From Arenimonas composti TR7-09 = DSM 18010 (GTDB lineage Bacteria; Pseudomonadota; Gammaproteobacteria; Xanthomonadales; Xanthomonadaceae), in assembly GCF_000426365.1 (NCBI RefSeq), contig NZ_AUFF01000013.1, positions 1-56,689 on the forward strand: a stretch of DNA of 56,689 nt, given 5' to 3'. Under the pieces are notes generated by a model. It did no database searches. It was given only the letters and a program-made list of their open reading frames with translations, and was not told where the DNA came from. Position 1 is the stretch's first letter; each line of letters begins with the position of its first letter. Of the stretch, positions 26,477-52,159 are shown in pieces. Made by a program: the position numbers and the translations under genes.

Positions 26477-28716
<2,240 letters not shown>

Positions 28717-28728
28717 CCGCTCGCGCTG

Positions 28729-28818
28729 CCCCGGCCTCCGCGGGTACGTCGCCCGGCCTGCGCGGGTACGTCGCCCCGGCCTGCGCGGGTAGGTCGCCCC
28801 GGCCTCCGCGAAGGTCAC
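28729..28818 (+). repeat. 22-23 bp tandem repeat after tgt
   Basis: Three and a half units of CCCCGGCCTGCGCGGGTACG followed by TCG. The last partial unit merges into the left arm of the hairpin at 28803-28869, whose arm begins with the same CCTCCGCG sequence. The units look like an amplification of part of that arm. Confidence 0.8.
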
Positions 28819-28869
28819 GAGCTTTTTTCCTCCGCGCGGCTCAGAAAAAACTCGTGGCCTTCGCGGAGG
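28803..28869 (+). repeat. TTTTTTCC-core 3' hairpin, copy 1 (after tgt)
   Basis: Arms 28803-28821 and 28851-28869 pair over 19 bp with one mismatch. The core reads TTTTTTCCTCC...GGCTCAGAAAAAA on the plus strand, the coding strand of tgt, whose stop is 87 bp upstream. It could act as a terminator or 3'-end stabiliser. Confidence 0.88.
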
Positions 28870-28911
28870 ACGGGGCCGATTGGCCGGGCGGCGGGCCGGG
28901 GATCGACCGGC

Positions 28912-29470
28912 GTCAGCGCCCGCGACGAGCGAAGCCCGATGCGTTGGCGGCGTGTTCGCGGACACACCCCCTGCCGGCGACCGGGCTGCCACGGCGGCGA
29001 TCGGGCCAGCCAGCGGTGACCGCGGAGCCTGCATCGCGGTGAGCGGGCGTCCCGGACATCGCCGCCGGGAACCTCATCCGGATCACGACTCGGCGTGTGC
29101 CGGGCCGAACGTGGCCGGAGGCGCCGGCGTCCGCGACCTTCGCGGCTTCGTTGCGGCGTCGGTCTTCGGACCCGTAACGCGCGCGGCGGCGCCGCGCCGC
29201 GCCGCAGGCGCGCGACCGTGGCCGAAGGACTGGCAAGCGGCGGAGCGGGGGGAGGGGGCGGCGGCGCAGTTCGGCCCGGCACATGATCGAGGCTCCGCTC
29301 GTGGCGCGATTCCCGTACCTCCAGGGACGGGACGCACCCTTCCTGCATCGAAAGCACCGCGGTCACCGCTGGCTGGCGCGATCGCCGCCGTGACGCCCCG
29401 GTCGCCGGCATGGGGCGGGTCCGCAGAGGCGCCGCCAACGCATCGGGCGACGCCCGTCGCGGGCGCTGAT
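28912..29470. repeat. Large inverted repeat (~125 bp arms)
   Basis: Arms of about 125 bp, 28912-29035 and 29345-29470, are inverted copies of each other at roughly 80-85% by eye. Shared blocks include CAGCGCCCGCGACG, CCGATGCGTTGGCGGCG, CCGGCGACCGGG, CGGCGGCGATCG and CCAGCCAGCGGTGACCGCGG. Between them lies the element 29067-29314. Confidence 0.82.
29067..29314 (+). mobile_element. MITE-like ~250 bp element, copy 1
   Basis: It begins GGGAACCTCATCCGG and carries GTGCCGGGCCGAAC at 29097-29110; the right end has the inverse GTTCGGCCCGGCAC (29269-29282) and ends ATTCCC. The inner block TTGCGGCGTCGGTCTTCGGA (about 29149-29168) is shared with the copy at 33158-33408, which lies in the opposite orientation. 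No open frame; non-autonomous. No target-site duplication could be made out. Confidence 0.6.
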
Positions 29471-29614
29471 GTGGGTCGGTCCCCGGCGCGCCGCAGAAAA
29501 CCGGGCCTGGGCGACGTAGCCGCAGGCCTGGGTGGGACAGGCGAGGGGCCCGGGCGAGTGGGCGGGGGTGTGGCATACTTGCCCGCTTGTTGTCGCCTTG
29601 GGAAGTGCAAGTCC

Positions 29615-29956
29615 ATGAGTTTGCTCGATTTCCTGATTTCCCCCGCCGCCGCCGCCCCGGCCGCCGGCACCCCGCCCGGTGGTGGCCTGCTGGGCTTCGC
29701 GCCGCTGATCATCATCTTCGTGCTGATGTACTTCATGATCATCCGCCCGCAGAGCAAGCGCGCGAAGGAGCATCGCGAGATGGTCTCCAAGCTCGCGAAG
29801 GGCGACGAGATCCTGACCACCGGCGGCATCGCCGGGCGCATCACCGATGTGGGCGACGACTTTGTCACCGTCGAGGTCGCCGAAAAGGTCGCGATCAAGG
29901 TCCAGCGCGGCGCCGTTTCGGCGGTGCTGCCGAAGGGCACGTTGAAGGCCGCCTGA
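29615..29956 (+). CDS. yajC: Preprotein translocase accessory subunit YajC
   Basis: 113 aa. One transmembrane helix (LLGFAPLIIIFVLMYFMIIR) followed by the conserved RPQSKRAKEHREMVSKLAKG and a small cytoplasmic beta domain (GDEILTTGGIAGRITDVGDD). YajC associates with SecD-SecF and SecYEG in protein export. An unusual Ala/Pro stretch (AAAAPAAGTPP) precedes the helix. secD follows after 56 bp. Confidence 0.96.
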   Translation: MSLLDFLISPAAAAPAAGTPPGGGLLGFAPLIIIFVLMYFMIIRPQSKRAKEHREMVSKLAKGDEILTTGGIAGRITDVGDDFVTVEVAEKVAIKVQRGAVSAVLPKGTLKAA

Positions 29957-30012
29957 GCCACCCCCATCCGATCCACCCTCGGCCCTGACCGGGCCGCTAC
30001 CGGTTGTCGCCC

Positions 30013-31887
30013 ATGCTTCAGTACTCCACCTGGAAATACGTGGTCGCCGCGATCGTGATCGCGCTGTCGGCCCTGTACTCGCTGCCCAACCTGTATCCGA
30101 AGGAACCTGCGGTGCAGGTCGCGCTGAACCGGGGCACCGCCGACGCCGGCACCGTGGAGCGGGTACGCTCCGCACTGACGGCGGCGCAGGTCGCGACGAC
30201 CGACATCGCGATCGAGGACGACAAGGTACTGGTGCGGGTCGCCGACGCCGAATCGCAGACGAAGGCCAAGGACGCGATCGACGCCGCCCTCGGCGACGAG
30301 TTCACGGTCGCGCTGAGCCTGGCCTCGACGGTGCCGTCGTGGCTCGACTCGCTCGGCGGCAAGCCGATGTCGATGGGTCTGGACCTGCAGGGTGGCGTGC
30401 ACTTCCTGCTGCAGGTCGACCGCGAGGCGGCGATCGAGAAGCGCGCCAACGGCTTCGTCGAGGAGATCTCGGCGCTGCTGCGTTCCGGCGGCTACTCCTA
30501 CCAGAGCGTCGCCCGCAACGGGAACGGCGTGGTGGTCCAGCTCGGCGAGAACGAGAGCACGGACCGCGTCCGCGCCGCGCTCGGGCGCGAGGTGCCGGAA
30601 CTGGTCGTCGAGACCAGCACCGCGCAGCCGGGCCGCATCGTCGCGACGATGCCGCCGGCGCTGATCGACCAGATCATGAGCGACGCGATCGAGCAGAACC
30701 GCACGACGCTCGACAACCGCATCAACGCCCTCGGCGTCGGCGAGCAGGTGATCCAGCGCCAGGGCGAGGATCGCATCGTCGTGCAGCTGCCCGGCGTGCA
30801 GGACACCACCGGGGCCCGCCGCATGATCGGCGCCACCGCGACCCTCGAATACCGGCATGTGGTCGCCGAGGGCGTGCAGGCGATGGAAGCCGCGCGCACC
30901 GGCGTTATCCCGCCGGGCGCCAGGCTCTACTACATGCGCCAGCGCGCGCCGGACGGCAGCCGCATTCCGATCCTGCTGTCGTCGCGCGTCATCGTCTCCG
31001 GCGACCAGCTGGTCAACGCCACCTCGCAGTACGACGGCCAGAGCGGCACCCCGTCGGTCGCGATCGAACTCAACAACGCCGGCGGCAACCGCATGCTGGC
31101 GCATACCCGCGACCACGTCGGCCAGCAGATGGCGGCGGTCTACATCGAGACGATCCCGGAAGTGCGGGTCGTGAACGGCGAGGAAGTGATCACCTCGCGC
31201 ACCGAGGCCGAGGTCATCAACGCCGCCCGCCTGATCGGCGTGTTCGGCAAGAACTTCCAGACCACCGGCCTCGACAGCATGACCGAGGCGACCGAACTGG
31301 CGATGCTGCTGAAGGCCGGTTCGCTGGCGGCGCCGATGGTGATCATCGAGGAACGCATCATCGGCCCGAGCCTCGGCGCCGAGAACATCGAGCGCGGCCT
31401 CACCGCGGTGTTCTGGTCGTTCGGCTTCGTGCTGATCTTCTTCCTGATCTACTACAAGATGTTCGGCATCGTCACCAACCTGGCGCTGCTGCTGAACCTG
31501 CTGATGGTGATCGCGGTGATGTCGGTGATCGGCGCGACCCTGACATTGCCCGGCCTCGCCGGCATCGCCCTGACCGTCGGCATGTCGGTCGACGCCAACG
31601 TGCTGATCAACGAACGCATACGCGAAGAGCTGCGCAACGGCATGACACCGCTGACGAGCATCGTCAACGGCTACGACAAGGCCTCCGGCACGATCGCCGA
31701 CGCCAACGTCACCGCGCTGCTCGCCGGCCTGGCGATGGCGGTGTTCGGCTCGGGCCCGATCCGCGGCTTCGGCGTCACCCTGATCATCGGCATCCTGACC
31801 TCGATGTACACCGCGGTCTCGGTGTCGCGCGGCATCGCCACCCTGATCTACGGCCGTCGGCGCAAGCTGACCGGCCTGGCGATCTGA
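30013..31887 (+). CDS. secD: Protein translocase subunit SecD
   Basis: 624 aa RND-like membrane protein that, with SecF, uses the proton gradient to pull secreted proteins across the membrane. N-terminal helix (STWKYVVAAIVIALSALYSL), the conserved PSWLDSLGGKPMSMGLDLQG and DLQGGVHFLLQVD, periplasmic P1 domain to about 440, then five C-terminal helices with GIALTVGMSVDANVLINERI and GPIRGFGVTLIIGILTSMYT. The ATG at 30013 is preferred to the TTG at 30004. secF follows after 19 bp. Confidence 0.97.
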   Translation: MLQYSTWKYVVAAIVIALSALYSLPNLYPKEPAVQVALNRGTADAGTVERVRSALTAAQVATTDIAIEDDKVLVRVADAESQTKAKDAIDAALGDEFTVALSLASTVPSWLDSLGGKPMSMGLDLQGGVHFLLQVDREAAIEKRANGFVEEISALLRSGGYSYQSVARNGNGVVVQLGENESTDRVRAALGREVPELVVETSTAQPGRIVATMPPALIDQIMSDAIEQNRTTLDNRINALGVGEQVIQRQGEDRIVVQLPGVQDTTGARRMIGATATLEYRHVVAEGVQAMEAARTGVIPPGARLYYMRQRAPDGSRIPILLSSRVIVSGDQLVNATSQYDGQSGTPSVAIELNNAGGNRMLAHTRDHVGQQMAAVYIETIPEVRVVNGEEVITSRTEAEVINAARLIGVFGKNFQTTGLDSMTEATELAMLLKAGSLAAPMVIIEERIIGPSLGAENIERGLTAVFWSFGFVLIFFLIYYKMFGIVTNLALLLNLLMVIAVMSVIGATLTLPGLAGIALTVGMSVDANVLINERIREELRNGMTPLTSIVNGYDKASGTIADANVTALLAGLAMAVFGSGPIRGFGVTLIIGILTSMYTAVSVSRGIATLIYGRRRKLTGLAI

Positions 31888-31906
31888 CGGAACTGCAGGA
31901 GCGAAC

Positions 31907-32875
31907 GTGGAACTGTTCCCGTCCAACAGCAACATCAAGTTCATGTCGGCGAGCAAGCCGGCGATGGCGATCTTCTTCGTGCTCGTGCTGGTCGCCTTCG
32001 TCGGCCTGGCGACGAAGGGCTTCAACTACGCGCTGGACTTCACCGGCGGCACCGTCGTCGAGATCGCGTTCGAGAAGCCCGCCGACGTCGAGGGCGTGCG
32101 CGAGCGCCTCGAGGCCGCCGGCTACTCCAGCCCGATCGTGCAGACCTTCGGCGCCGGCGACGACCTCGTGATCCGCCTGCAGCCGCCGGAAACCGACGAC
32201 GAGCGCCCGCTGGAATCGGCGCCCGCGAGCGAGAAGGTCGGCGCCGCGATCCTCGCGGTCGCACAGACCGCGGATAATCCGGGCAAGGTCGTGCGCAGCG
32301 ACTTCGTCGGTCCGCAGATCGGCAACGAGCTGGCGCTCAACGGCATCTACGCCGCCGTGTTCGTGGCGCTGGGCTTCCTCGCGTACATCGCGATCCGCTT
32401 CGAGTTCAAGTTCGCGGTCGCGGCGGTGGTCTCGACCCTCGGCGACATCGCCCTGGTCTGTGGCTGGTTCGCGTTCAGCCAGCACGAGTTCGACCTGACC
32501 GTGCTCGCCGGCGTGCTGTCGGTGATGGGCTTCTCGATCAACGACAAGATCGTGGTCTTCGACCGCGTGCGCGAGAACTTCCGCCTGCTCAGCAAGCTCG
32601 AGCCGAAGGAAGTGCTGAACCGCTCGATCAACCAGACGCTGTCGCGTACGGTGATCACCTCGTTCGTCGCCTTCCTGACGGTGCTCGCGCTCTATCTGTA
32701 CGGCGGCAATTCGCTGACCGGCATGGCGGAGTCGCAGATGATCGGCATCGTGATCGGCACGCTCTCCTCGATCCTCGTCGCCTGTCCGCTGCTGCTGGCG
32801 CTCGGTGTCACCAAGCAGGACCTCCTGCCCAAGGCCCGCGCCGACCTCGACGCCGAACTCGCCCGCCGCCCGTAA
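31907..32875 (+). CDS. secF: Protein translocase subunit SecF
   Basis: 322 aa partner of SecD. N-terminal helix, then LDFTGGTVVEIAF of the periplasmic domain, and the C-terminal membrane block with VLSVMGFSINDKIVVFDRVR, ENFRLL, and NQTLSRTVITSFVAFLTVLA. The GTG start at 31907 is preceded by GCAGGAGC. A long hairpin with a T-rich/A-rich core begins 33 bp after the stop. Confidence 0.97.
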   Translation: MELFPSNSNIKFMSASKPAMAIFFVLVLVAFVGLATKGFNYALDFTGGTVVEIAFEKPADVEGVRERLEAAGYSSPIVQTFGAGDDLVIRLQPPETDDERPLESAPASEKVGAAILAVAQTADNPGKVVRSDFVGPQIGNELALNGIYAAVFVALGFLAYIAIRFEFKFAVAAVVSTLGDIALVCGWFAFSQHEFDLTVLAGVLSVMGFSINDKIVVFDRVRENFRLLSKLEPKEVLNRSINQTLSRTVITSFVAFLTVLALYLYGGNSLTGMAESQMIGIVIGTLSSILVACPLLLALGVTKQDLLPKARADLDAELARRP

Positions 32876-32907
32876 GCGTTTCCCTCGGCGCATTGTTGGT
32901 TCATCGG

Positions 32908-32984
32908 CCCGGCCTCCGCGCAGGGCACGAGCTCTTTTCCTCCTCGCGGCTCGGAAAAGACTCGTGTCCTGCGCGGAGGCCGGG
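32908..32984 (+). repeat. TTTTTTCC-core 3' hairpin, copy 2 (after secF)
   Basis: 24 bp arms (32908-32931, 32961-32984) pair with one mismatch. The core reads CTTTTCCTCC...GGCTCGGAAAAG on the plus strand, the coding strand of secF. Arms resemble those of copy 1 but have changed on both sides together. Confidence 0.88.
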
Positions 32985-33157
32985 CTCGTTGCACGTCGGC
33001 GCCGGGGGAAATGCTTTCGCCGGCTTTTGCCTGGCGCGGGCGGGTTCAGCTTCGACGCGTCGGGTCGATTGATTCGGCGGGCGTCTTTCCGGATCTTCGT
33101 AGCGGCGTCGCGCCTGCAGTCGTCGGCGCGGAAGCGTGCTCGCCCGGCTTCGTCACC

Positions 33158-33408
33158 GGGAACCAGTTCCGGCTCACGACCCGGCGGGTGCCGAGCCGAA
33201 CGCGGACGCGGCGCCGGTGTTCGCCGCGATCCTGCTCCGCCCGTTGTCGGGCTTCGGCAACGACGTAGAAGCCGGGCCGCATCAACCGGCGCGCGCCGCC
33301 CGGCATCCGAAGACCGACGCCGCAGCGAAACGGCCGACCCCAGCAAGCCCGCGCCATCGGCCGCGTTCGGCTCGGCACTCCACGAGTCGTGATCCGAATG
33401 AAGTTCCC
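33158..33408 (-). mobile_element. MITE-like ~250 bp element, copy 2 (inverted)
   Basis: Terminal inverted repeats of ~48 bp: 33158-33205 (GGGAACCAGTTCCGGCTCAC...) and 33361-33408, sharing CACGAC and GTGCCGAGCCGAACGCGG. On the minus strand the order end, inner block (GCGGCGTCGGTCTTCGGA), end matches copy 1 at 29067. No reading frame; non-autonomous. Boundaries show no clear target duplication. Confidence 0.7.
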
Positions 33409-33597
33409 GGCCCCGAAGCCGCAGCCCCGCTTCTCACGCCAGAGCAGCGGCGAACGCAGGCAGCAAGTCGGGGCCGCCGCCATTTCCGGATGGTCACAGG
33501 GGCGCCGGGCGCAGCCCGACACCGCTACGGGTTCCGCCTGCAGCACGCGCGCGCTGCGCGCCTCTGGAGCGGCGAGGAGATCCGGCCGCGGCGACCG

Positions 33598-33653
33598 TGC
33601 GGGCCGCAAGTTTTTTCCGAGCCACGCGGAGGAAAAAAGCTTGCGGTTCGCGC
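33598..33653 (-). repeat. TTTTTTCC-core 3' hairpin, copy 3 (after suhB)
   Basis: Arms GCGGGCCGCAAG and CTTGCGGTTCGC (33599-33610, 33640-33651) flank a core that on the minus strand reads TTTTTTCCTCC...GGCTCGGAAAAAA. suhB, on the minus strand, ends 57 bp away, so this copy too has the gene's orientation. Weaker pairing continues outward (CTGGAGCGG / CCGCTCCAG). Confidence 0.86.
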
Positions 33654-33709
33654 GGGCGGCGCGGGGACGCCCCGCACCCGCTCCAGACCGCAAAGCGCGA
33701 AAGCGGGAA

Positions 33710-34525
33710 TCAGACGGAGAAGGCCGCGGTGTAGCCGGAAGCGGTGAGGGACTTCTGGAGCGCGTCGGAGAGCTTGAGATTGCCGGCGACGATCTGCGTC
33801 GAGGCGCCGGTCGTGAGCAGCCGCTCGCTGCGCCCGAGGAAATCGCAGACCCGCCCGCCGGCCTCGCGCACGATCAGCATGCCGGCGGCGATGTCCCAGG
33901 GCTTCACCCCGGCCTCGAAATACCCGTCGACCCGGCCGCAGGCCACGTAGGCCAGGTCCAGCGCGGCCGAACCGGTGCGGCGCACGTCCTCGGCCTCGGC
34001 GAGCAGGGCCTCGATCGCCGCCAGCTGCGGCGCCAGTCGCGCACGCTCACGCGGCGGGAAGCCGGTGACCAGCATCGCGCCCTTGAGGTCCTTGCGCTCG
34101 CCGATGCGGAGCTTCTTGTCGTTGAGCAGGGCGCCGGAACCGCGCGAGGCGGTGAACAGCTCGTTGCGCAGCGGGTCGAAGATCACGCCGTGGATCGGCT
34201 CGCCGTTCTCGACGACGGCGATCGACACGCAGAAATGCGGGAAGCCGCGCAGGAAATTCGAGGTGCCGTCCAGCGGATCGATCACGAAGGTGTAGCGGCC
34301 CTTGCCCATCGCCCCGGATTCCTCGGCGAGGATCCCGTACTCGGGGAAGGCGCGGCGCAGCTCGCGTATGATCTCGGCCTCGGCCGAGGCGTCGACTTCG
34401 CTGGCGTAGTCCTGCTTCGACTTCTCGAAGACGTTCAGCGCGTCGAGCTTGCCGACGTGGCGCAGGATCAGGTTGCCGGCAGCACGGGCCGCCTTGACCA
34501 TGACGTTGACGACAGGTTTTTGCAT
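33710..34525 (-). CDS. suhB: Inositol-1-monophosphatase (SuhB type)
   Basis: 271 aa. It hydrolyses inositol monophosphates with Mg2+; in bacteria SuhB also joins rRNA antitermination complexes. Metal-site motifs: [30 protein letters not shown] and [19 protein letters not shown]. The ATG at 34525 matches the family N terminus ([19 protein letters not shown]). It is divergent from trmJ across 103 bp, a conserved pairing, and both promoters must lie in that gap. Confidence 0.96.
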
Positions 34526-34628
34526 GGGCCCGTCCGGATGACCGCTGGATTGGATGAAGAACGAAGGGCCGGTCGAGCCGGCGCCGCGCAAGGATAGCAG
34601 GTCACCCGTGAGCGGAACCCGCGAAAGC

Positions 34629-35426
34629 ATGAATACCGATCCGGACGGAACGCTGCCGCGGGTCCGCATCGTCCTGGTCGGCACCCAGCACCCCGGCAAC
34701 ATCGGCTCGGCGGCGCGGGCGATGAAGACCATGGGCCTGTCCGAGCTGCACCTGGTCACGCCGGAGCGTTTCCCACACCCCGAGGCCGTGGCCCTGGCGG
34801 CCGGGGCCGACGACGTACTGGACGCGGCCCGGGTGCAGTCCGACCTCGATGCCGCGCTGGCCGGTTGCCACCTCGTGATCGGCACCAGCGCCCGCCGTCG
34901 CCACGTGCCGCTGCCCGAGCACGGGCCGCGCGGGGCGGCCGCGGCCCTGGTCGCCGCGGCTGCCCGTGGTCCGGTGGCCCTGGTCTTCGGCCGTGAGCGC
35001 ACCGGCCTGGAGAACCAAGAACTGCAGCGCTGCCACGCGACGGTGACGATCCCGACGAATCCGGACTACAGCTCCCTGAACCTGGCGGCCGCCGTGCAGG
35101 TCCTGGCTTACGAGCTGCGGCTGGCGGCGCTGGCGCCGGTCGGCGAGGGCCTCGCGACGATCGCGCCGGTGCCGGTGGCCCCGCCCGGCGAGGACGAGGA
35201 GCCGCCGGCGACCATCGACGAGCTCGAGCGCTATTTCCGCCACCTGCACGCGGCCCTGGACGCGATCGACTTCCACAAGGGCAAGTCGCCGGACCGGGTG
35301 ATGGCGCGGCTGCGCCGGCTCTACCTGCGCGCGGCGCCGGACCGCCGTGAGCTGCGCATCCTGCACGGCATCCTCGCCGACACCGAGCGCATGGCCCGGC
35401 TCGCCGGCGAAGGCGAGGGCGGCTAG
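34629..35426 (+). CDS. trmJ: tRNA (cytidine/uridine-2'-O-)-methyltransferase TrmJ
   Basis: 265 aa SPOUT-class enzyme that 2'-O-methylates position 32 of tRNAs. Motifs: [20 protein letters not shown] at the N terminus, and the knot motifs [16 protein letters not shown] and [20 protein letters not shown]. The C-terminal helical extension includes [20 protein letters not shown]. The ATG at 34629 is the usual family start. It is divergent from suhB. Confidence 0.95.
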
Positions 35427-35484
35427 CGCGGTTTTCACGCGGCGAATACAGTAGCCGCGTCCCGTACGAGTTCCCCCCGCCCTC

Positions 35485-36417
35485 GTGACCCCGCGCAATT
35501 CCGGCCTCTTCCGAGGCGCGATCCGCCGGCTGTGCCTCCTCCTCGCGATGGCGGCGGCGCTGCCGGCGTCGGCCGCCGATGGGGTGCTGGTGCTCGGCCG
35601 CATCAGCGACGACCCGCGCCAGCACCACGAACAGCTGCAACCGCTGCTCGATTACGTGGTGCCGCGCATGGAGTCCGTCGGTATCCGCGAGGGCCGCGTG
35701 CTGATGGCCCGCGACCCGCAGCAGATGATGAGCTACCTGCGCCGCGGCAAGGTCGACTGGGTCACCGAGACGCCGGCGATGGGGCTGCTGCTGGTCGACC
35801 GCGCCGGCGCCCGGCCGCTGCTGCTGACCGAACGCTCCGGCTCGCGCGAATACCGCAGCGTGATCTTCACCCGCCGCGATTCCGGCATCACCGACATCGG
35901 CCAGCTGCTCGGACGCACGATCGCCTTCCAGTCGCCGGCCTCGACCAGTGCCTACGTGGTGCCGGCGATGGACCTGCTCGAACGCGGCCTGCCGATGAGC
36001 CTGATGGTGTCGCCGATGGAAGGCGCGGATCCGGGCAGCGTCGGCTACGTGTTCGCCAACACCGACACCAACCTCGCGGCCTGGGTGCACACCCGCCTGG
36101 TCGACGCCGGTGGCTTCAGCGACCAGGACTGGGAATCGCTGCAGCGGATGTCGGAAGCCTTCCGCCGCGACCTCGTGATCATCCACACCAGCGAACCGGT
36201 GCCGCGGGCGATGGAGATCGTCGCCGGCGGCATGGACCCGCGGGTGGCCGAACGCCTGCGCGAGGTGCTGCTCGGCGCCAGCAGCGACCCGCAGGCGCGC
36301 GAGGCGCTGCGCCAGTTCTTCCGCACCACCGGCTTCTACGAGAGCGACGCCTCCACCGACGCCGCCCTCGACCAGCTGCGGCGCGGCTCCCGCCGCGTCC
36401 GCGAGGCGCTGGAATGA
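35485..36417 (+). CDS. PhnD-like periplasmic substrate-binding protein
   Basis: 310 aa from a GTG at 35485. Signal peptide (LCLLLAMAAALPASAAD), then a phosphate/phosphite/phosphonate-binding (PhnD) fold: LVLGRISDDPRQHHEQLQPL, a MMSYLRRGKVDWVTETPAM loop, YRSVIFTRRDSGITDIGQLL, GRTIAFQSPASTSAYVVPAM. No ABC transporter genes adjoin it. Instead it overlaps by ATGA a membrane GGDEF-EAL protein, so it is likely a ligand sensor feeding cyclic di-GMP signalling rather than an uptake protein. The ligand is unknown. Confidence 0.86.
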   Translation: MTPRNSGLFRGAIRRLCLLLAMAAALPASAADGVLVLGRISDDPRQHHEQLQPLLDYVVPRMESVGIREGRVLMARDPQQMMSYLRRGKVDWVTETPAMGLLLVDRAGARPLLLTERSGSREYRSVIFTRRDSGITDIGQLLGRTIAFQSPASTSAYVVPAMDLLERGLPMSLMVSPMEGADPGSVGYVFANTDTNLAAWVHTRLVDAGGFSDQDWESLQRMSEAFRRDLVIIHTSEPVPRAMEIVAGGMDPRVAERLREVLLGASSDPQAREALRQFFRTTGFYESDASTDAALDQLRRGSRRVREALE

Positions 36418-38534
36418 AGGGCGCGCCGAGGCTGGGCCTGCGTGGCGAGATGCTGCTGCTGATGGCGGCGATCCTGCTGCTGGTGACGGCCCTGTTCGCC
36501 GGCCTGTGGTGGCACGAGAAGCGCAGCAATGCCGATGCCCGCGAGCTCAGCGCCGGCGCCGTGCGCGAACTGACCCGCGAGGGCCTGCTCGGCCGCGGCC
36601 AGACGCTGTCGAGCCAGCTCGCCGACGCCGCGACGAACCCGATGTACTACATGGACCTGGCGACGCTCGGCGAACTGGCGCGGGCGACGCTGCGCCAGCC
36701 CGACGTCGTCTACGTGATCATCCACGACGCCGACGGCCAGGTCGTGCACGACGGTTCCGGCGACATACCGGCCTTCGGCCAGCCGATGTCCGACCCGATG
36801 GCCTTCGAGGCGCTGAACGCCGACGGCGTGCATGCGCAGTGGAGCAGCAAGCTGCTCGACGTCGCGGCACCGATCCGCATCGGCGGCCAGCGCATCGGCG
36901 GCGTACGCGTCGGCCTGTCGCGCGACAACGCCACGGCCCGCGAGCGCGACGTGCTCGAGCCGCTGGCGCAGCGCCTGCAGGCGGCGAGCAACGAACACCT
37001 GGTCGGCCTGCTGCTCCTGCTCGGCTGCCTGGTGTTGCTGGGGCTCGGCGCCACCGCGCTGTTGCAGCGGCGCATCGTCCAGCCGATCACCGGCCTGGCC
37101 GAGGCCGCCGCGCGCATCGAGCAGGGGCGCTATGCCGAGGTCGACGTGCATTCCGACCGCCGCGACGAGATCGGCGAGCTGGTGCGCGCCTTCGCGCGGA
37201 TGAGCGAGGCGGTGGCGCGGCACGACCGCGACATCCGCCGCATGGCCTATACCGATTCGCTGACCGGCCTGGCCAACCGCCTGGCCTTCCGCGAGAGCCT
37301 CGACGAGCGCCTGCTGACGATGCAGGCCAGCAGCGGCGAGCTGGCGCTGCTGTTCGTCGACCTCGACGACTTCAAGCGCGTCAACGACACCCTCGGCCAC
37401 GAGGCCGGCGACGACGTGCTCGGGCAGCTGGCGATGCGCATCCGCCTGGCGGTCGAGCGCATCGGCGGCAACACGGCCGAGATCGCCCGGTTCGGCGGCG
37501 ACGAGTTCATCGTGCTCTACCTCGCCGAGGACATCCGCAGTGCCTCCGGTCGCCTGGCCGAGGAACTGATCGAGGAGATCCAGCGGCCGCTGCTGCTGCA
37601 CGGGCGCCAGGTCTTCCTGGGCGCCTCGGTCGGCATCACCCTGTTCCCGTTCGACGCGACCTCGGCCGGGCAGCTGCTGAAGAACGCCGACATCGCGATG
37701 TACCAGGCGAAGCTGGCCGGCAAGGGCTGTTACCGCTTTTACAGCAAGGCGATGGACCAGGCGGTCGAACGCCGTGTCCGCCTCGAGGAGGAGCTGCGCG
37801 GCGCCTGGGAACGCGGCGAACTGAGCGTGCATTACCAGCCGATCTTCCGCCTCGCCGACGGCCGCCTGATGGGCGCCGAGGCGCTGTGCCGCTGGGACCA
37901 CCCGCGCCTGGGCGTGGTGCCGCCGTCGGTGTTCATCGAGGTCGCCGAGCAGAGCGGCCTGATCGAGGCGCTCGGCCGCAACGTGCTGCAGCAGGCCTGC
38001 CGCGACGCCGCGAGCTGGTCGCAGCCGGGCCAGGAGAAGCCCTTCGTGTCGGTCAACATCTCGCCGCGGCAGCTGCGCACCGGCGACCTCCCCGACGTCG
38101 TCGCCAGCGCCCTCCGCGCGACCGGCCTGCTGGCGGAACAGCTGCACCTGGAACTCACCGAGACCGCCGTGCTCGGCGACGAGGTGCAGGCCAGCGCCCT
38201 GCTGTCGCGGCTGCGCGCGACCGGCGTCAAGGTCTGGCTCGACGACTTCGGCACCGGCTTCTCCGGCCTCAGCCACCTGCGCCGCGTGCCGGTCGACGGG
38301 GTCAAGATCGACCGCAGTTTCGTCGCCGACGTGCTGCGCGATCCCGACGATCTCGCGTTGACCTCGGCGATCATCGCGATGGCGCATTCGCTCGGCATCA
38401 CGGTCGTCGCGGAAGGCATCGAGGCCGAGGGGCAGTACGAGGTCCTGCGCGAGCGCGGCTGCGACCAGGGCCAGGGCTTCTGGCTCGGCCGCCCGATGCC
38501 CGCGCCGGAGATCCTGCGCAACTTCGCCGAGTAG
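36414..38534 (+). CDS. Membrane GGDEF-EAL protein with HAMP domain
   Basis: 706 aa. Helix at about 13-33, a periplasmic domain (to ~190), a second helix (LVGLLLLLGCLVLLGLG), HAMP (RRIVQPITGLAEAAARIEQG), GGDEF with an intact FGGDEF (about 362-367), and EAL with GAEALCRWDHP, ELTETAVLGDE, DDFGTGFSGLSHL, KIDRSFVADV and VVAEGIEAEGQ. All catalytic residues of both domains are present, so it could make or degrade cyclic di-GMP. No RxxD inhibitory site precedes GGDEF. It is coupled to the PhnD-like protein, which probably docks to its periplasmic domain. Confidence 0.95.
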   Translation: MKGAPRLGLRGEMLLLMAAILLLVTALFAGLWWHEKRSNADARELSAGAVRELTREGLLGRGQTLSSQLADAATNPMYYMDLATLGELARATLRQPDVVYVIIHDADGQVVHDGSGDIPAFGQPMSDPMAFEALNADGVHAQWSSKLLDVAAPIRIGGQRIGGVRVGLSRDNATARERDVLEPLAQRLQAASNEHLVGLLLLLGCLVLLGLGATALLQRRIVQPITGLAEAAARIEQGRYAEVDVHSDRRDEIGELVRAFARMSEAVARHDRDIRRMAYTDSLTGLANRLAFRESLDERLLTMQASSGELALLFVDLDDFKRVNDTLGHEAGDDVLGQLAMRIRLAVERIGGNTAEIARFGGDEFIVLYLAEDIRSASGRLAEELIEEIQRPLLLHGRQVFLGASVGITLFPFDATSAGQLLKNADIAMYQAKLAGKGCYRFYSKAMDQAVERRVRLEEELRGAWERGELSVHYQPIFRLADGRLMGAEALCRWDHPRLGVVPPSVFIEVAEQSGLIEALGRNVLQQACRDAASWSQPGQEKPFVSVNISPRQLRTGDLPDVVASALRATGLLAEQLHLELTETAVLGDEVQASALLSRLRATGVKVWLDDFGTGFSGLSHLRRVPVDGVKIDRSFVADVLRDPDDLALTSAIIAMAHSLGITVVAEGIEAEGQYEVLRERGCDQGQGFWLGRPMPAPEILRNFAE

Positions 38535-38570
38535 GTTGCCGGCCGCGCGGTGGCGTACGCCGCCGGCCTG

Positions 38571-38634
38571 GGCGCGCGACTGAAATCTTTTTTTCCTCCT
38601 CGCGGCTCGGAAAAAAACTTTCAGCCGTCGCGCC
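38571..38634 (+). repeat. TTTTTTCC-core 3' hairpin, copy 4 (after GGDEF-EAL gene)
   Basis: Arms GGCGCGCGACTGAAA (38571-38585) and its inverse with a 3 base insertion (38619-38634) flank TTTTTTTCCTCC...GGCTCGGAAAAAAA on the plus strand, the coding strand of the gene ending at 38534. Confidence 0.85.
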
Positions 38635-38924
38635 GCGTCCGCCCGGTTTCCATCGCCGACCGGACCCTGCAAGGCAAAGCCGCGCAGGATCCCCGGCACG
38701 ACCATCGCCCGCGAGCCAGAAGCGTCGCGAGCGACGAGCAATCCCGATCGCGCGCGCCCGCGCCACGCGCGTGTCGTCGCATGCGTCCCCGCGCTTCCCC
38801 CACAACGCCGCGCCGCAACCTCCCCGACGAGGGACCCCCGAACACCATCGCCGGCCTGATCTCCCCACGTCATCCGCACGCGATCACCGCAACCGCCGGC
38901 GCCGTGTCACGGCCGGGGCGTGAC

Positions 38925-38974
38925 GGCCAACAGCTTTTTTCCGAGCAACGAGGAGGAAAAAAAGCTGTTGGTCG
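38925..38974 (-). repeat. TTTTTTCC-core 3' hairpin, copy 5 (after exoD)
   Basis: Arms GGCCAACAGC and GCTGTTGGTC flank a core that on the minus strand reads TTTTTTTCCTCC...TGCTCGGAAAAAA. exoD, on the minus strand, ends about 53 bp away. Confidence 0.86.
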
Positions 38975-39026
38975 GCGCGCCCGAGGCCGGCGACGACAGC
39001 ATCCGGCGCGGGGCGCGCGAAGCGCG

Positions 39027-42938: not shown

Positions 42939-44996
42939 GTGCTGCTCGCCGCCGGGCCGCTGCTGTTCCTCGCCGGCCTGCTGGCGACGCCGATCCTCGC
43001 CCACCTGCTGCCCAGGCCGCTGGCGCAGACGCTGGCCCTCTGGCTGCTGCCGCTGGGCCTGGCGGCCGTGGCTGCGCGGGCGCTGCGGCAGCGGGCCGCC
43101 GACCTGCTCGCGATCGGCTGGGGCGCGCTGCTGCTGGTTTTCGCCGGGCCGCTGCCGGTGCTGGCCACCGTGGTTCTGGCCGCGGCGGCGCTGGTGCTCG
43201 GGCATGCACTGCTGCCGCGGCGGCCGCCGGAGTTGCGGATCGCGGTCGGGCTGGCGCTGGTCGCGGGCGCGCTCGGCTGGCTGCTGGCGCTGCCGGTGCA
43301 CCGGGCGATCGTGTACTGGCCGCTGCTGCTGGCGCTGGCCGGCTGGCGCTGGCGCCTGCTCGCGACCGAGGCGCGTGCGCTGACGGGCGGCTGGCGGGTG
43401 GCGGTCGATGCCGCGCCCGGCGCGGCGACCGTGGCGATCGCCACACTGGGCCTGCTGAGCACGGCGGCCTGGCTGCCGACCCTGGAATTCGACGACGTCG
43501 TCTATCACCTGGCGCTGCCGGCGCAGCTGCAGCAACTCGGCGCCTACCGCTTCGACGCGCAGTCGCAGATGTGGGCGCTGGCGCCGTGGGGCGGGGACGT
43601 GTTGCACGGCGTCGTGCAGGTGCTCGCCGGCGGCGAAGGGCGGGGCGCCCTCAATGCGCTCTGGCTGCTGCTGCTGGCGACGCTCGGCTTCCGGCTCGTG
43701 CGCGCGGTCGGCGAGGACGCCGCCGGTGGCTTCGCCGGGGTGGCGCTGATCGCCTCGGTGCCGACGCTGCTGTGGCTGGTCGGCGGCATGCAGGCCGAAC
43801 TGCCGTCCGCTGTGCTGGCGATGGCGATCGCGCTGCAGCTCGCGGTGCCGCCGGGAGAGCGCGGCGGATGCGGCGACGGCGGCGAAGGCGAGCGCCGCCG
43901 GCTGTTCGCGCTGGCGGTGCTCGCCGGTGGCCTGATGACCATCAAGGCCAGCAATGTGCTGCTGGCACTGCCGCTGGCGAGCTGGTGGCTCGCGGTGGCC
44001 GCGCGCCGCCTGCCGTGGCGGTGGCTGCCGGCCGGCCTGGGCGTGCTGCTGCTGGTGGGTGGGTCCAGCTACGTCTTCGCGTGGGGGCTGAGCGGTAACC
44101 CGCTGCTGCCGCTGTTCAACGACGTGTTCCCGAATGCGATCGCCGGCGGCAGCGGTCTGGACCGGCGCTGGCTCGTCGGCTTCGGCCCGGATCTGCCGTG
44201 GCGGATCGCCTTCGAGACCGACCGCTATGTCGAAGCCTTCCCCGGCGGTGCCGGCTTCCTGCCGGTCGTGCTCGCCGGCGGCGCCGTCGCCGCGCTGGCC
44301 ATGCGGCGGACGCGCGCGCTGGCGCTGGCGGCGATCGCCGCCTGGGTGCTGGCGATGCTGCCGATGCAGTACGCACGCTACGCGCTGCCGGCCAGCCTGC
44401 TGCTGGTGCCGGCCCTGGTCGCGGGAACCCGGGCGCTGGCCGGTGGCCGCGCCGGAATGGCGATGCTGGGCCTGGTGCTGGTGGCGAACCTGGCCTTCTT
44501 CGCCAACGGCTCGTGGATCTGGCGCGCCGGCGCGGTGAAGCGGCTGCTCGACCCGCGCGACGGCGGCGTCGTCGGAATCCACCGGGACTTCCTGCCCGAA
44601 CGCATGCTCGGACCGCTGCTGCAGGGCCGCGACGACGTGCGCCTGCTGGTCGTCGGCCCGGAGCCGGCGATCGCCGAATTCGGCGGCCGTGCCTTCGCCG
44701 GCTCGCGCTACGACCTCGAACTCGCGGCGGCGATCACCGCGGCTGCGGAAGATGGCTCAGCCGCGGCCTGGTCGGCGCTGTTCGTGGAGTTCGGTTTCAC
44801 CCACCTCAGCCTGCGGCCGGGGCTGACCCCGTCGCTCGATGCCGCGCTGCCGGCGATCGGCGGCGAACCCGAGGCGGCGCTCGGGGTGATCGAACTGTGG
44901 CGGCTGCCGGTGGCGCCCGGGGCGCGCGACCTGATGCGCGAGCGGGACGGCAGGCGCGCGTTACCGCTGCCGGCAGGCAACAGCGATCGCGGCTGA
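42939..44996 (+). CDS. Polytopic GT-C-like membrane protein, putative glycosyltransferase
   Basis: About 685 aa from a GTG at 42939; the true start is uncertain because the frame is open further upstream through pit. About twelve hydrophobic helices. The segment LEFDDVVYHLALPAQLQQLG fits the acidic DD...YH loop of ArnT/GT39-like GT-C enzymes that use lipid-linked sugars. The C-terminal ~200 residues form a soluble periplasmic domain. The stop codon lies inside a REP-like repeat (44984-45008). The donor and acceptor are unknown; a non-catalytic membrane protein is possible. Confidence 0.7.
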   Translation: MLLAAGPLLFLAGLLATPILAHLLPRPLAQTLALWLLPLGLAAVAARALRQRAADLLAIGWGALLLVFAGPLPVLATVVLAAAALVLGHALLPRRPPELRIAVGLALVAGALGWLLALPVHRAIVYWPLLLALAGWRWRLLATEARALTGGWRVAVDAAPGAATVAIATLGLLSTAAWLPTLEFDDVVYHLALPAQLQQLGAYRFDAQSQMWALAPWGGDVLHGVVQVLAGGEGRGALNALWLLLLATLGFRLVRAVGEDAAGGFAGVALIASVPTLLWLVGGMQAELPSAVLAMAIALQLAVPPGERGGCGDGGEGERRRLFALAVLAGGLMTIKASNVLLALPLASWWLAVAARRLPWRWLPAGLGVLLLVGGSSYVFAWGLSGNPLLPLFNDVFPNAIAGGSGLDRRWLVGFGPDLPWRIAFETDRYVEAFPGGAGFLPVVLAGGAVAALAMRRTRALALAAIAAWVLAMLPMQYARYALPASLLLVPALVAGTRALAGGRAGMAMLGLVLVANLAFFANGSWIWRAGAVKRLLDPRDGGVVGIHRDFLPERMLGPLLQGRDDVRLLVVGPEPAIAEFGGRAFAGSRYDLELAAAITAAAEDGSAAAWSALFVEFGFTHLSLRPGLTPSLDAALPAIGGEPEAALGVIELWRLPVAPGARDLMRERDGRRALPLPAGNSDRG

Positions 44997-45008
44997 AGCC
45001 GCTCCTAC
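44984..45008 (-). repeat. REP-like unit (GTAGGAGCGGCTTCAGCCGC type)
   Basis: A single copy, inverse orientation, of the second REP family with an internal GCGGCTGAAGCCGC palindrome. It supplies the TGA stop (44994-44996) of the preceding membrane protein gene. Confidence 0.88.
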
Positions 45009-45024
45009 AAGGGGGCGGGTGGGG

Positions 45025-45824: not shown

Positions 45825-45826
45825 GG

Positions 45827-45969
45827 ACAGAAACGAGAAACGAGGAACGAGAAACGAGTAGGAGCGGCTTCAGCCGCGATCGATCCAACGCGCGCAAGCG
45901 CGCGTCCGCGCCACAAGGCGCGGGCCTTCACTCGTTTCTCGTTCCTCGTTTCTCATTTCTCGCTTCTGT
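45827..45969. repeat. Heptamer-array inverted repeat (ACGAGAA) with enclosed REP
   Basis: Left arm 45827-45859 is made of 7 bp units (ACGAGAA ACGAGGA ACGAGAA ...); right arm 45930-45969 is the inverse with one extra unit. Between them lies a REP-like unit (45858-45881) and a GCGCGC-rich palindromic stretch. It starts directly after the ATL stop and ends before the rhomboid gene. Confidence 0.9.
45858..45881 (+). repeat. REP-like unit (GTAGGAGCGGCTTCAGCCGC type)
   Basis: One copy in the loop of the heptamer inverted repeat, same family as 44984-45008 and 46701-46736. Confidence 0.88.
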
Positions 45970-46700: not shown

Positions 46701-46736
46701 GTAGGAGCGGCTTGTAGGAGCGGCTTCAGCCGCGAT
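46701..46736 (+). repeat. REP-like units, one partial and one complete
   Basis: A truncated copy (GTAGGAGCGGCTT, 46701-46713) is followed directly by a full copy (46714-46736). They sit in the 46 bp between the rhomboid stop and the rapA stop, which converge. Confidence 0.9.
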
Positions 46737-46738
46737 CC

Positions 46739-49633
46739 CTACCTCCTGAACTGCAGGAAATCCGGACTCGCCACCAGCCGCAACGCATCCAGCCGCGGCC
46801 GCGCCGTCGGAATCGCCGCGAGCACGGCCTCGCGCTCGGCCTCGAGCGCGGCGATCTCCTCGGTGCGCACGCCCGGATTGACGCGGGCGAGGGCGCGCAG
46901 GCGGGCGACGCCCGCGTCGAGCGCCGTGCGCGCGGCCGCCAGCGCGGTGTCGATGCGCGCGGCCGCGGCTTCGGCGGCAGCGGCGCGGGCCGCCTCGAGC
47001 ATCGGCGGCACCAGCGCCGCGAGCACCTTGCGCTGCGGGCCGAGGTCGAACACGCGGTCGCCGGCGCGGTGGCGTGCGCGTTCGCCGGGCGCGAAGTCGG
47101 GGCGGCGCTGCAGCTTCGTGTCGATCGCGACCGCGACCGGCGCCGGCGGCAGCCAGCGGGCGATGTCCAGCCCCGGCGGGGCGACGCATTCGAGCACGTG
47201 TAGCGCTTCCAGGATCACCGTGCGCGGCGGCAGCGCGTCGTCGACCAGCAGGGCGGCATTGCCGGTCTCGCCCGACAGCAGCAGGTCGAGCGCCGACAGC
47301 AGCAGCGGGTGGTCGTCGCGCAGGTAGAGCAGGTCGTCGCGGGACAGCGCGAGTTCGCGCTGCAGGGTGGCCTGGCGAGGCCCGGACTTGAGTTCCTCGA
47401 AGCCGTCGACGGTCAGGTGCTCGGGATCCAGCAGCCACATCCCCGAAGACAGCGGCTCGTGGTGCACGCCGAAGGCCTCGAGCAGGCGCAGCGGGAAGTC
47501 GTCCATCGCCGCATGCGCATCGTCGTCGCGCAGCGCCCGCAGCAGGGCGTCGTCGCCGGCGCGGCGGCTGCCGAGTTCGAGCAGGCGGTCGCGGCCCTCG
47601 GCGATGATCCGCGCCAGTTCGGCGTGCTTCGCGCGGCTGCGCGCGATCAGTTCCGACAGCGCCGGTTCGCGCGCCTCGGCATCGGTCGCGGCCAGCTGCA
47701 GCAGTTCGGCGGCGAACGCGCGCAGCAGCTCGCGGCCGTCGGCGAGCACGTTGCGGAACGCGTCCAGGCCTTCGTGCAGCCAGCGCAGCAGCACTTCCTG
47801 GGCGCTGCCCTCGACCGCGGCCACATGCAGGTGCACATCGCCGCGCTGGCCGATGCGGTCGAGGCGGCCGATGCGCTGTTCCAACATGTCCGGATGCAGC
47901 GGCAGGTCCCAGAAGATCAGGTGCTGGGCGAACTGGAAGTTGCGGCCCTCGGCGCCGATCTCGCTGGCGACCAGCAGGCGCGCGCCTTCCGGATCGGCGA
48001 AGTAGGCGGCGTTGCGGTCGCGCTGCAGCAGGTTCATGTCTTCGTGGAAGCGGGCGACGGCGATGCCGCTGCGCAGGCGCAGGGCTTCCTCGAGGGCCTG
48101 CACCTTGGCGCGCGAGCGGCACAGCAGCAGCGCCTTCGCCGGGGCGATGGCCTCGAGCAGGGCCAGCAGCCAGTCGGTGCGCGGATCGCGGGCGAAGTCG
48201 TGCGCCGGTTCGTCGTCGGTCTCGCCGGTGTCGTGCGCGAACTCGGCGCGCAGGCGGCCGAGCACGGTCGGGTCCTCCGGCGCCGGCAGCGACTGCAGGT
48301 CGACGAGTCGGCGCGGGAAGCCGCCGACCCCGGCGAGGGCGCCGTCGTCGTCGCCGGTGGCGCGGCGGTTGCGCACCATCACCCGGCCGGTGCCGTGGCG
48401 GTCGACGAGGTCGGCGAGCAGCGCCTCGCGCGCGCTGCGGTCGCGGACGTCGTCGTCGGCGCCGTCGCCGCCGGCGATGTGCACGAGCCGCTGCGCCAGC
48501 GTCTCGCCGTCGTCGCCGAACAGGGCCGCCAGGTCCTGCACGTCCTGCGCGGTCAGCGCTTCGCCGCCGGCGAGCCGCCCGGCCAGCGCCGACAGTTCGA
48601 CATAGCGGGCGGACTCGGCGCGGAAGGCCTCGAGATCGGTGTAGCGCGCCGGGTCGAGCAGGCGCAGGCGGGCGAAATGGCCGCCGAGGCCGAGCTGTTC
48701 CGGGGTCGCGGTCAGCAGCAGCAGGCCCGGCGTGCGCCGGCTCAGCGCCTCGACCAGGGCATAACCCGGACTGACGAATTCCGGCGTCCACACCAGGTGG
48801 TGCGCCTCGTCGACCAGCAGCAGGTCCCAGCCGGCGGCCAGCGCCTGCTTCGCGCGCTTGTCGTGCGAGGCCAGCCAGTCGACCGAGGCGATCACGCACT
48901 GGTCGTCCTCGAACGGGTTGGCTTTCGGCTCGGTGAGTTCCAGCGACTCGCAGCGCTCCTCGTCGAAGATCGCGAACGCCAGGTTGAAGCGACGCAGCAG
49001 CTCGACGAACCACTGGTTGACCAGCGATTCCGGCACCAGCACCAGCACCCGCCGCGCGCGGCCGCTGGCGAGTTGCTGGGCGGCGATCAGGCAGGCCTCG
49101 ATCGTCTTGCCCAGGCCCACCTCGTCGGCGAGCAGCAGCCGCGGCGGCCGCCGTTCGGCCGCCATCGCCGCGACCCGCAGCTGGTGCGGGATCAGGTCGA
49201 TGCGGGCGCCGAGCACGCCCCAGCCCGGATGCGCGCGCGCGTCGGCGCGGCGCTGCAGGCACTCGCGGCGGAATTCGAACTGGTCGTTGCGGTCGACGCG
49301 GCCCGACAGCAGCCGCGAATCGGCCTGCGACACCGGCTGCTCGGCATCCAGCTCGCCTTCGGCGTGCACGCGGCCGCCGGCGTGGTAGTGGATCAGCGTC
49401 TCGCGCAGTTCGGCCTGCTCGACGACGAGCTCCTCGCCGCCGATGCGCACGCGCTCGCCGGGGCGGAACACCGCCCGCAGCAGCGGCGCCGAGCCGAGCG
49501 CGTACATGCGCACGACGCCGCTGCCGGTGAAGACGATCTGCACCTGGCGGCCCGCGAGCCGCAACACCGTGCCCAAGCCGAGTTCGGGCTCGGCGCTGGA
49601 GAACCAGCGCTGGCCGGGAGCGAACGCGTTCAT
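46739..49633 (-). CDS. rapA: RNA polymerase-associated ATPase RapA
   Basis: 964 aa Swi2/Snf2 translocase that recycles RNA polymerase. N-terminal Tudor-like modules (APGQRWFSSAEPELGLGTVL), helicase domain 1 with RLLLADEVGLGKTIEACLIA and LLLVDEAHHLVW, domain 2 with LVASEIGAEGRNFQFAQHLI and MLEQRIGRLDRIGQRGDVHL, then the RapA C-terminal domain. The ATG at 49633 begins the Tudor region. It starts 1 bp after the stop of the M13-like gene on the same strand. Confidence 0.95.
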   Translation of the reverse strand: MNAFAPGQRWFSSAEPELGLGTVLRLAGRQVQIVFTGSGVVRMYALGSAPLLRAVFRPGERVRIGGEELVVEQAELRETLIHYHAGGRVHAEGELDAEQPVSQADSRLLSGRVDRNDQFEFRRECLQRRADARAHPGWGVLGARIDLIPHQLRVAAMAAERRPPRLLLADEVGLGKTIEACLIAAQQLASGRARRVLVLVPESLVNQWFVELLRRFNLAFAIFDEERCESLELTEPKANPFEDDQCVIASVDWLASHDKRAKQALAAGWDLLLVDEAHHLVWTPEFVSPGYALVEALSRRTPGLLLLTATPEQLGLGGHFARLRLLDPARYTDLEAFRAESARYVELSALAGRLAGGEALTAQDVQDLAALFGDDGETLAQRLVHIAGGDGADDDVRDRSAREALLADLVDRHGTGRVMVRNRRATGDDDGALAGVGGFPRRLVDLQSLPAPEDPTVLGRLRAEFAHDTGETDDEPAHDFARDPRTDWLLALLEAIAPAKALLLCRSRAKVQALEEALRLRSGIAVARFHEDMNLLQRDRNAAYFADPEGARLLVASEIGAEGRNFQFAQHLIFWDLPLHPDMLEQRIGRLDRIGQRGDVHLHVAAVEGSAQEVLLRWLHEGLDAFRNVLADGRELLRAFAAELLQLAATDAEAREPALSELIARSRAKHAELARIIAEGRDRLLELGSRRAGDDALLRALRDDDAHAAMDDFPLRLLEAFGVHHEPLSSGMWLLDPEHLTVDGFEELKSGPRQATLQRELALSRDDLLYLRDDHPLLLSALDLLLSGETGNAALLVDDALPPRTVILEALHVLECVAPPGLDIARWLPPAPVAVAIDTKLQRRPDFAPGERARHRAGDRVFDLGPQRKVLAALVPPMLEAARAAAAEAAAARIDTALAAARTALDAGVARLRALARVNPGVRTEEIAALEAEREAVLAAIPTARPRLDALRLVASPDFLQFRR

Positions 49634-51521: not shown

Positions 51522-51575
51522 CGGGGGTCGGGACGGAGGCGGTGGGGTCGGGATTCTAGCCCTCCGGCGGTGAAG

Positions 51576-51609: not shown

Positions 51610-51649
51610 AAGGCGCCCGGGCGGGGCCCGGGAAGGGCAGGGCGGCGAT

Positions 51650-52157: not shown

Positions 52158-52159
52158 CC

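What the first reader, a model, noticed from the sequence alone, without database searches (positions are those of the whole stretch)
28803..38974. A 3'-oriented hairpin family with a fixed core and covarying arms
Five copies (28803-28869, 32908-32984, 33598-33653, 38571-38634, 38925-38974) share a core TTTTTTCCTCC...GGCTCGGAAAAAA but have different arms, and within each copy the two arms are complementary. Every copy lies within about 30-90 bp of the 3' end of a gene (tgt, secF, suhB, the GGDEF-EAL gene, exoD). In all five the core has the same orientation relative to that gene, whichever strand it is on. Random insertion would not give this. It suggests a specific class of 3'-end element (terminator, 3'-UTR stabiliser or protein-binding hairpin), or a mobile palindrome with strict target choice. 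The conserved 12 base loop (TCCTCGCGGCTC-like) may be a recognition site.
Basis: seen in the sequence. Interest (0 to 1): 0.8.

Follow-up and report, generated by a model that had tools for sequence, protein, structure and literature searches.

The report
Mobile palindromes ending in DNA hairpins
The five hairpins are the ends of larger palindromic, apparently mobile DNA elements that settle between genes in a bacterium of the genus Arenimonas, so their place at gene ends seems to reflect where the element lands and what is tolerated rather than a dedicated gene-ending signal.

Summary
The five copies are real, self-complementary and placed as described, but they are ends of larger intergenic palindromes (about 0.4-0.85 kb) with two inward-facing hairpins, not independent 3'-end elements. 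Of 18 copies in the genome, 12 fit the orientation rule, 5 lie at gene 5' sides and 1 is unclear.

Other Arenimonas species carry the same architecture with another loop. In 51 such hairpins, 24 of 31 pairs show compensatory change and 97% of cells pair. Of 19 fetched elements, 9 are convergent, 10 codirectional, 0 divergent; hairpins facing 5' ends are as perfect as those facing 3' ends. Mobility: the groEL site is occupied in 1 of 26 loci, and five elements with halves 86-93% alike sit at unrelated A. daejeonensis loci. In relatives, 15 of 19 terminator-bearing ends lie 17-24 nt beyond the terminator hairpin; the window species has a terminator at 1 of 12 ends.

Arm mismatches on the loop strand are A.C 41, G.T 7, pointing to folding of the outward-reading strand.

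Best reading: a non-autonomous MITE/REP-dimer-like mobile palindrome, mobilising enzyme unknown. Shared descent of the window's and the relatives' families is likely, not proven. Two spacers (secF-suhB, tgt-yajC) hold palindromes in several species, so a site function or hot spot remains possible.

The parts
28796..28876 (+). left terminal hairpin of element 1 (tgt-yajC spacer); loop strand +
28888..29494 (.). palindromic body of element 1 (arms 28888-29054 / 29328-29494 and inner arms); no right hairpin found
32906..32985 (+). left terminal hairpin of element 2 (secF-suhB spacer)
32986..33583 (.). body of element 2 (whole element 62% self-complementary)
33584..33665 (-). right terminal hairpin of element 2, inverted relative to the left one
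38562..38642 (+). left terminal hairpin of element 3 (GGDEF-EAL / exoD spacer)
38643..38907 (.). body of element 3 (short; whole element 61% self-complementary)
38908..38988 (-). right terminal hairpin of element 3, inverted relative to the left one

Best explanation
The hairpins are the ends of a non-autonomous mobile palindromic element. SHOWN: (1) the unit is [hairpin > ... imperfect palindrome ... < hairpin]; (2) in relatives it is an insertion, present at a site in one species and absent from the same site in others, and copied whole to unrelated loci in A. daejeonensis; (3) no credible gene was called inside the elements examined; (4) relatives' elements lie in intergenic regions, none divergent in the sample, often just beyond an intrinsic terminator. 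INFERRED: a trans-acting recombinase or transposase, not identified (a RAYT-type Y1 enzyme is one candidate), recognises the terminal hairpins as folded DNA on the outward-reading strand, helped by the conserved apical motif. Near-perfect pairing is kept by that recognition or by template-switch copying within the hairpin. The 3'-end location and orientation then follow from inverted symmetry, from landing beyond terminators (relatives) and from selection against promoter or coding insertions. That the window's family belongs to the same lineage as the relatives' family is likely but not proven.
For: Inward-facing pairs: 10 of 10 fetched G297 elements (20 hairpins, 550-649 bp apart) and 4 pairs among the 18 own copies. 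Self-complementarity 61-79% in 23 of 23 elements tested (for window 28780-29520 over 109-715 only). Whole-unit copying: halves of five G297 elements fall into two classes with best matches 0.86-0.93, elements in both orientations, next to unrelated genes; identical hairpins at different G234 sites. Insertion: at groEL only G297 shows the hairpins among 26 loci read (searched for the relatives' loop; the own core has no copy on that contig). secF-suhB spacer 815-955 bp in G297, G103, G234 and 841 in G000, 241 bp with one hairpin in G268, against 57-97 bp in 10 of the 14 other measurable genomes. tgt-yajC gap 901 nt here against 52-254 nt in 20 of 24 relatives. Context: 0 of 19 divergent and 9 of 19 convergent, background 19 and 10 of 85 gene pairs. 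Terminator spacing 17-24 nt in 15 of 19 ends with a terminator, out of 31 3'-facing ends. Codirectional sites: hairpins facing 5' ends hold 1 mismatch in 11 stems of 24 pairs, their partners 6 in 11 (one mis-indexed hairpin taken). Arms: 6 G.U cells in about 1,320; A.C 17 to G.T 4 and 24 to 3.
Against: No target-site duplication was seen at six G297 elements (by eye); no autonomous copy or mobilising gene found; no excision observed. Two sites are shared between species: secF-suhB and tgt-yajC, where G297 and G042 carry other giant palindromes without the relatives' loop (69% over 539 nt and 60% over 504 nt); the DEAD-helicase site is shared by G297 and G103 (flanking protein 95% identical). 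Vertical inheritance with a function, or a hot spot, would also give this. The bodies of the window's and the relatives' families show no similarity, and the covariance model that links them also picks up two unrelated GTAG-type palindromes, so it is driven by structure. The terminator spacing is not seen in the window's species (terminator at 1 of 12 ends).
Confidence: 0.62

Rival explanations
1. A 3'-end RNA element (terminator, 3'-UTR stabiliser or protein-binding hairpin) acting on the transcript of the preceding gene.
For: 12 of 18 own copies, and at least one hairpin of each of 19 relatives' elements, face a gene 3' end. Arms covary. In the window species hairpins follow stops closely, mostly without another terminator.
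Against: 5 of 18 own copies at 5' sides, including two divergent spacers. Hairpins facing 5' ends are equally perfect. In relatives 19 of 31 3'-facing ends have a terminator before the element. The mismatch bias points to the strand antisense to that gene. No terminator-like site overlaps the five hairpins.
Confidence: 0.12
2. A BIME/REP-like architectural element: a cruciform or protein-binding palindrome kept in convergent or codirectional spacers for nucleoid or supercoiling functions, whatever its origin.
For: REPs are likewise mostly between convergent and unidirectional genes (PMC3733652 passages). DNA-like pairing. Shared occupancy of secF-suhB, of the DEAD-helicase site, and of tgt-yajC by different palindromes.
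Against: Few copies (10 elements found in G297, 18 hairpins here); groEL occupied in 1 of 26 loci; two own sites lie between divergent genes; bodies not conserved between families.
Confidence: 0.17
3. Arms are complementary because of the mutational process (template-switch correction of quasi-palindromes), with no selection on structure.
For: 97% pairing despite divergence, few intermediates, hardly any G.U; perfection independent of context; whole elements are palindromic too.
Against: Whole elements are only 61-79% self-complementary while the relatives' hairpins stay 97% paired. The A.C over G.T bias relative to the element's own orientation needs a strand-specific cause.
Confidence: 0.08

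Closest known systems
REP dimers / BIMEs (GTAG- and CGTC-tagged palindromes; PMC3733652, passages seen)
   Same: intergenic palindromes in inverted pairs, mostly between convergent or unidirectional genes, with families differing in stem and loop
   Different: here about 80-nt hairpins, no constant GTAG/CGTC tag seen, partners about 270-740 bp apart inside one long palindrome (most REP partners 20-100 bp), about 10 elements per genome
Bacterial MITEs (review PMC10969869, passages seen)
   Same: non-coding, inverted-repeat ends (relatives: ATCTGGCGCCG ... CGGCGCCAGAT), dispersed as whole units, intergenic
   Different: no TSD seen, no parental transposon found, each end is itself a near-perfect hairpin, and in relatives the edge keeps a set distance to terminators
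Group IIC introns (PMC10190682, passages seen; terminator targeting is recalled)
   Same: insertion next to stem-loop DNA
   Different: no intron family among Rfam matches to E 0.5 in 7 loci; no reverse transcriptase gene called inside; palindromic and found in both orientations
Intrinsic terminators
   Same: hairpin behind genes
   Different: no terminator-like site at the five window hairpins; copies also at 5' sides

Membership tests
MITE | terminal inverted repeats shared by copies | tested here: met
   relatives' G297 copies share ATCTGG(C)GCCG ends in inverse orientation; for the window family only the hairpins are clearly shared ends
MITE | target-site duplication | tested here: not met
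   six aligned G297 elements show no flanking direct repeat (by eye)
MITE | no coding capacity, related autonomous transposon | tested here: inconclusive
   no gene called inside elements except one weak 94-aa call over the left hairpin of L150; no autonomous relative was found, and none was searched for by protein except RAYT
MITE | insertion shown by empty sites | tested here: met
   groEL and secF-suhB in relatives; tgt-yajC for the window's species, with the reserve that G297 and G042 carry other palindromes there
REP (GTAG/CGTC) | 20-40 bp palindrome with GTAG or CGTC at one end | tested here: not met
   about 80-nt hairpins; no constant GTAG or CGTC tag in the printed alignments
REP (GTAG/CGTC) | RAYT (Y1 transposase) as mobiliser | tested here: inconclusive
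   PF01797 in 11 of 11 genomes with either hairpin family and in 10 of 16 others (Fisher one-sided p 0.027); genome completeness and kinship are not controlled
intrinsic terminator | GC stem followed by T-tract | tested here: not met
   no site overlaps the five hairpins; 5 found in the region against 3.9 expected
group IIC intron | intron ribozyme domains | tested here: not met
   no intron family among Rfam matches to E 0.5 in 7 loci
integron attC site | cassette array next to an integron integrase | not tested
   no integrase search was run; many flanks are housekeeping genes

The most novel reading that the evidence does not exclude
A new kind of terminator-homing mobile palindrome: both ends are recognised as folded single-stranded DNA hairpins on the outward (3'-ending) strand, each closed by a conserved GA...GA internal loop; insertion is steered to about 20 nt behind intrinsic terminators; several families with different loops and bodies share this architecture, and even sites, across the genus.
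Probability: 0.2. Interest if true: 0.75.

Novelty: new variant of a known kind. Interest (0 to 1): 0.45.

Why it matters
It turns an apparent 3'-end signal into a mobile-element architecture, a caution for calling terminators or regulatory RNAs from repeated hairpins. The 51 relatives' hairpins with different arms, near-perfect pairing and very few wobble pairs are a clean case for asking how long DNA palindromes stay perfect. The spacing behind terminators in relatives is a testable target rule.

Tried and rejected
Rfam on the window: nothing at gathering thresholds. On 7 element loci at E up to 0.5: 10 weak hits, six of them to microRNA-precursor models, all below gathering. One relative's element against plasmid and phage collections: no match. 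nhmmer profile of relatives' halves against 12 own elements: no hit, nor against reversed controls. RAYT: not shown to be the mobiliser, but all 11 hairpin-bearing genomes have a PF01797 gene against 10 of 16 others; one lies about 1.1 kb from the own C3 copy; not followed further. Motif hits outside Lysobacteraceae: 24 loci rejected because flanks do not pair (2-12 of 24), two MAG contigs labelled Rhizobium and Ramlibacter pair 24 of 24 and look misbinned (GC 0.71 and 0.69; inference). Covariance model of own hairpins (only 150 first-look candidates per genome were scored): five relatives' places, all five with GTGAAGCC-type loops (one search looked at the wrong place in L268, mended), and two extra own hits that are GTAG-type palindromes. 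Fold energies on both strands: the opposite strand is more stable in 45 of 51 and 13 of 16, but part comes from wobble pairs at the stem foot, and the three relatives' apical loops tried are more stable on the loop strand with RNA parameters (two own loops the reverse); given little weight. mis-indexes the L143 right hairpin (20 false mismatches; one search gives 2). IS1447 paper (PMC6211511, passages): not about terminator targeting. Paper searches: no listed paper describes this family; only the top-ranked part of the larger results was listed (15 of 6,882), so absence from print is not shown.
Full report
OBSERVATION. The five hairpins are at the stated places and share the stated core. A 24-base core with up to 3 mismatches occurs 18 times in the 3.16-Mb genome (11 forward, 7 reverse) and 0 times for the reversed control. 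The arms pair with 3, 1, 5, 5 and 4 mismatches in 28-29 pairs for the window's five. Over 16 own copies 87.3% of 480 cells pair, 20 of 30 pairs have both-side changes, and slid controls give 36-52%. Alignment A2 holds 16 of the 18 copies: those at C13 and C1:947401, which closely match the copies at C9 and C6, were left out.

THE REAL UNIT. Copies come as inward-facing pairs: 32935+/33613- and 38591+/38937- in the window, 163390+/164130- on C2 and 166060+/166332- on C5; the other 10 copies stand alone in this search. Over 23 elements tested, own and relatives', the element aligns to its own reverse complement at 61-79%. Sequence behind the first window hairpin (to about 29128) recurs behind other copies. 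Four copies lie near contig ends (C1, C6, C9, C13).

RELATIVES. The own core was not found in 296 other genomes of the family (22-mer, up to 2 mismatches). But behind secF some relatives carry another long hairpin with a constant loop. A loop pattern gave 44 hits in 10 of 27 genus genomes, control 0. In the one-contig genome G297, ten elements with 20 inward-facing hairpins were found. A named collection holds contigs of the same length for G103 (Arenimonas terrae R29), G234 (Arenimonas sp. SCN 70-307) and G147 (A. metalli CF5-1); for G297 the A. daejeonensis KACC 14631 chromosome is 100 bases longer but has matching pair spacings. In 51 distinct relatives' hairpins, 97.4% of 1567 cells pair, 24 of 31 pairs have both-side changes (235 cells), and slid controls pair 46-51%.

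ARE THE FAMILIES RELATED? They share the architecture, the secF-suhB site and a loop plan: TC-[CTCGCGGC]-TC here (TG at the left in the two C2 copies) against TC-[AGTGAAGCCTTTTATT]-TC. A model of the own hairpins finds five relatives' places, all GTGAAGCC-type, but also two GTAG-type palindromes, so it is driven by structure. Bodies show no similarity. Common descent is likely but not proven.

MOBILITY. Five G297 elements at unrelated loci have halves with best matches 0.86-0.93 that fall into two classes, and they stand in both orientations, so the whole unit is copied. The groEL 3' site shows the hairpins only in G297 among 26 loci read (1300 nt behind the stop, 483 in one locus). The secF-suhB spacer is 815-955 bp in G297, G103, G234 and 841 here, 241 bp with one hairpin in G268; of 14 other measurable genomes 10 have 57-97 bp and the rest 162, 395, 484 and 1277 bp (the last not analysed); 7 loci did not reach suhB, one of which, L095, holds a hairpin arm with the loop. 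The tgt-yajC gap is 901 nt here, 52-254 nt in 20 of 24 relatives (upper bounds, as unaligned protein ends are included), not measurable in 2, and 692 and 715 nt in the two with other palindromes. No target-site duplication was seen.

PLACEMENT AND ORIENTATION. Own copies: 12 of 18 fit the 3'-end rule (five in the window, two on C5, one each at C1:933, C1:55, C8, C13, C6). 5 do not: both C2 copies between diverging PmbA/TldD and DUF3014 genes, C3 between diverging genes, C1:453 and C1:947 at 5' sides. C9 is unclear (own codon-score gene caller). Relatives: 9 of 19 fetched elements convergent, 10 codirectional, 0 divergent; gene pairs without hairpins in the fetched loci 10, 56 and 19 of 85 (orthologous sites are counted separately, so significance is rough). 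In 11 codirectional elements of a 21-element set the hairpins facing the 5' end hold 1 mismatch in all, their partners 6 in all (L143 right). Pairing is not tied to a gene 3' end.

TERMINATORS. In the 21 relatives' elements, 19 of 31 3'-facing ends have a terminator-like hairpin between gene and element. From its end to the edge (set at a fixed distance from the loop) is 17-24 nt in 15, and 33, 36, 37 and 60 nt in four. At groEL terminators are seen in species without the element (by eye), so they belong to the gene. The window's species differs: a terminator-like hairpin at 1 of 12 3'-facing ends, and 10 of 12 hairpins within 7-47 nt of the stop.

WHICH STRAND FOLDS. Mismatches in the arms are A.C 17, G.T 4, other 16 among 1200 cells (relatives; one hairpin with 6 mismatches left out) and A.C 24, G.T 3, other 12 among 461 (own, where an A.C at one position recurs in many copies). 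Copies share ancestry, so these are not independent events. A.C on the loop strand is G.T or G.U on the other. If pairing is selected or recognised, the folding strand is the one reading outward, antisense to the adjacent gene's 3' end. There the TC...TC that is invariant in the 51 relatives' hairpins reads GA...GA, able to form tandem G.A pairs (inference). Against this, three relatives' apical loops tried are more stable on the loop strand as RNA.

VERDICT. A mobile, non-autonomous palindrome with hairpin ends explains the data best. The regularity of the five copies is real but follows from element symmetry and placement. It works like a MITE or REP dimer; it fails the REP tag test and the TSD test for a MITE, so it is filed as a new variant of a known kind.

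Noticed in passing
L076 (G297) and L070 (G042), tgt-yajC spacers: Giant palindromes of a third kind (539 nt at 69%, 504 nt at 60% self-complementary), sharing a GAGCCTACATGGA-type stretch, at the same spacer where the window has its element 1.
   Followed up: partly
window 2-579: CRISPR-like array, 29-nt repeat GTGTTCCCCGCGAGCGCGGGGATGATCCG with mostly 61-nt period, at the contig start.
   Followed up: no
window 6761-6834, 12274-12387, 27515-27586, 44980-45012, 45855-45885, 46711-46741; also G000:C5:25888 and C6:102021: GTAGGAGCGCCTTCAGGCGCGATG-type palindromes, several in inverted pairs, resembling GTAG REP dimers (label recalled and from PMC3733652 passages).
   Followed up: no
window 45826-45966, 51575-51628, 52107-52158, 54416-54459: GAGTAACGAGTGGAGAG-type repeats, direct and inverted.
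   Followed up: no
G000:C3:459612-459953 (locus L168): A Y1 (RAYT-like) transposase gene lies about 1.1 kb from an own hairpin copy.
   Followed up: partly
L066 (G128, tgt-yajC spacer): Another long near-perfect palindrome, GGGGACGGGTGCAATTTGCCCC..., sits at this spacer.
   Followed up: no
L185, L230: MAG contigs labelled Rhizobium and Ramlibacter carry fully paired Arenimonas-type hairpins, probably misbinned.
   Followed up: partly
G000:C9 end and C13 end; C1 end and C6 start: Contig ends share 456 bp at 100% and 202 bp at 98%; if each pair of ends joins one element, its halves would be nearly identical inverted repeats.
   Followed up: no
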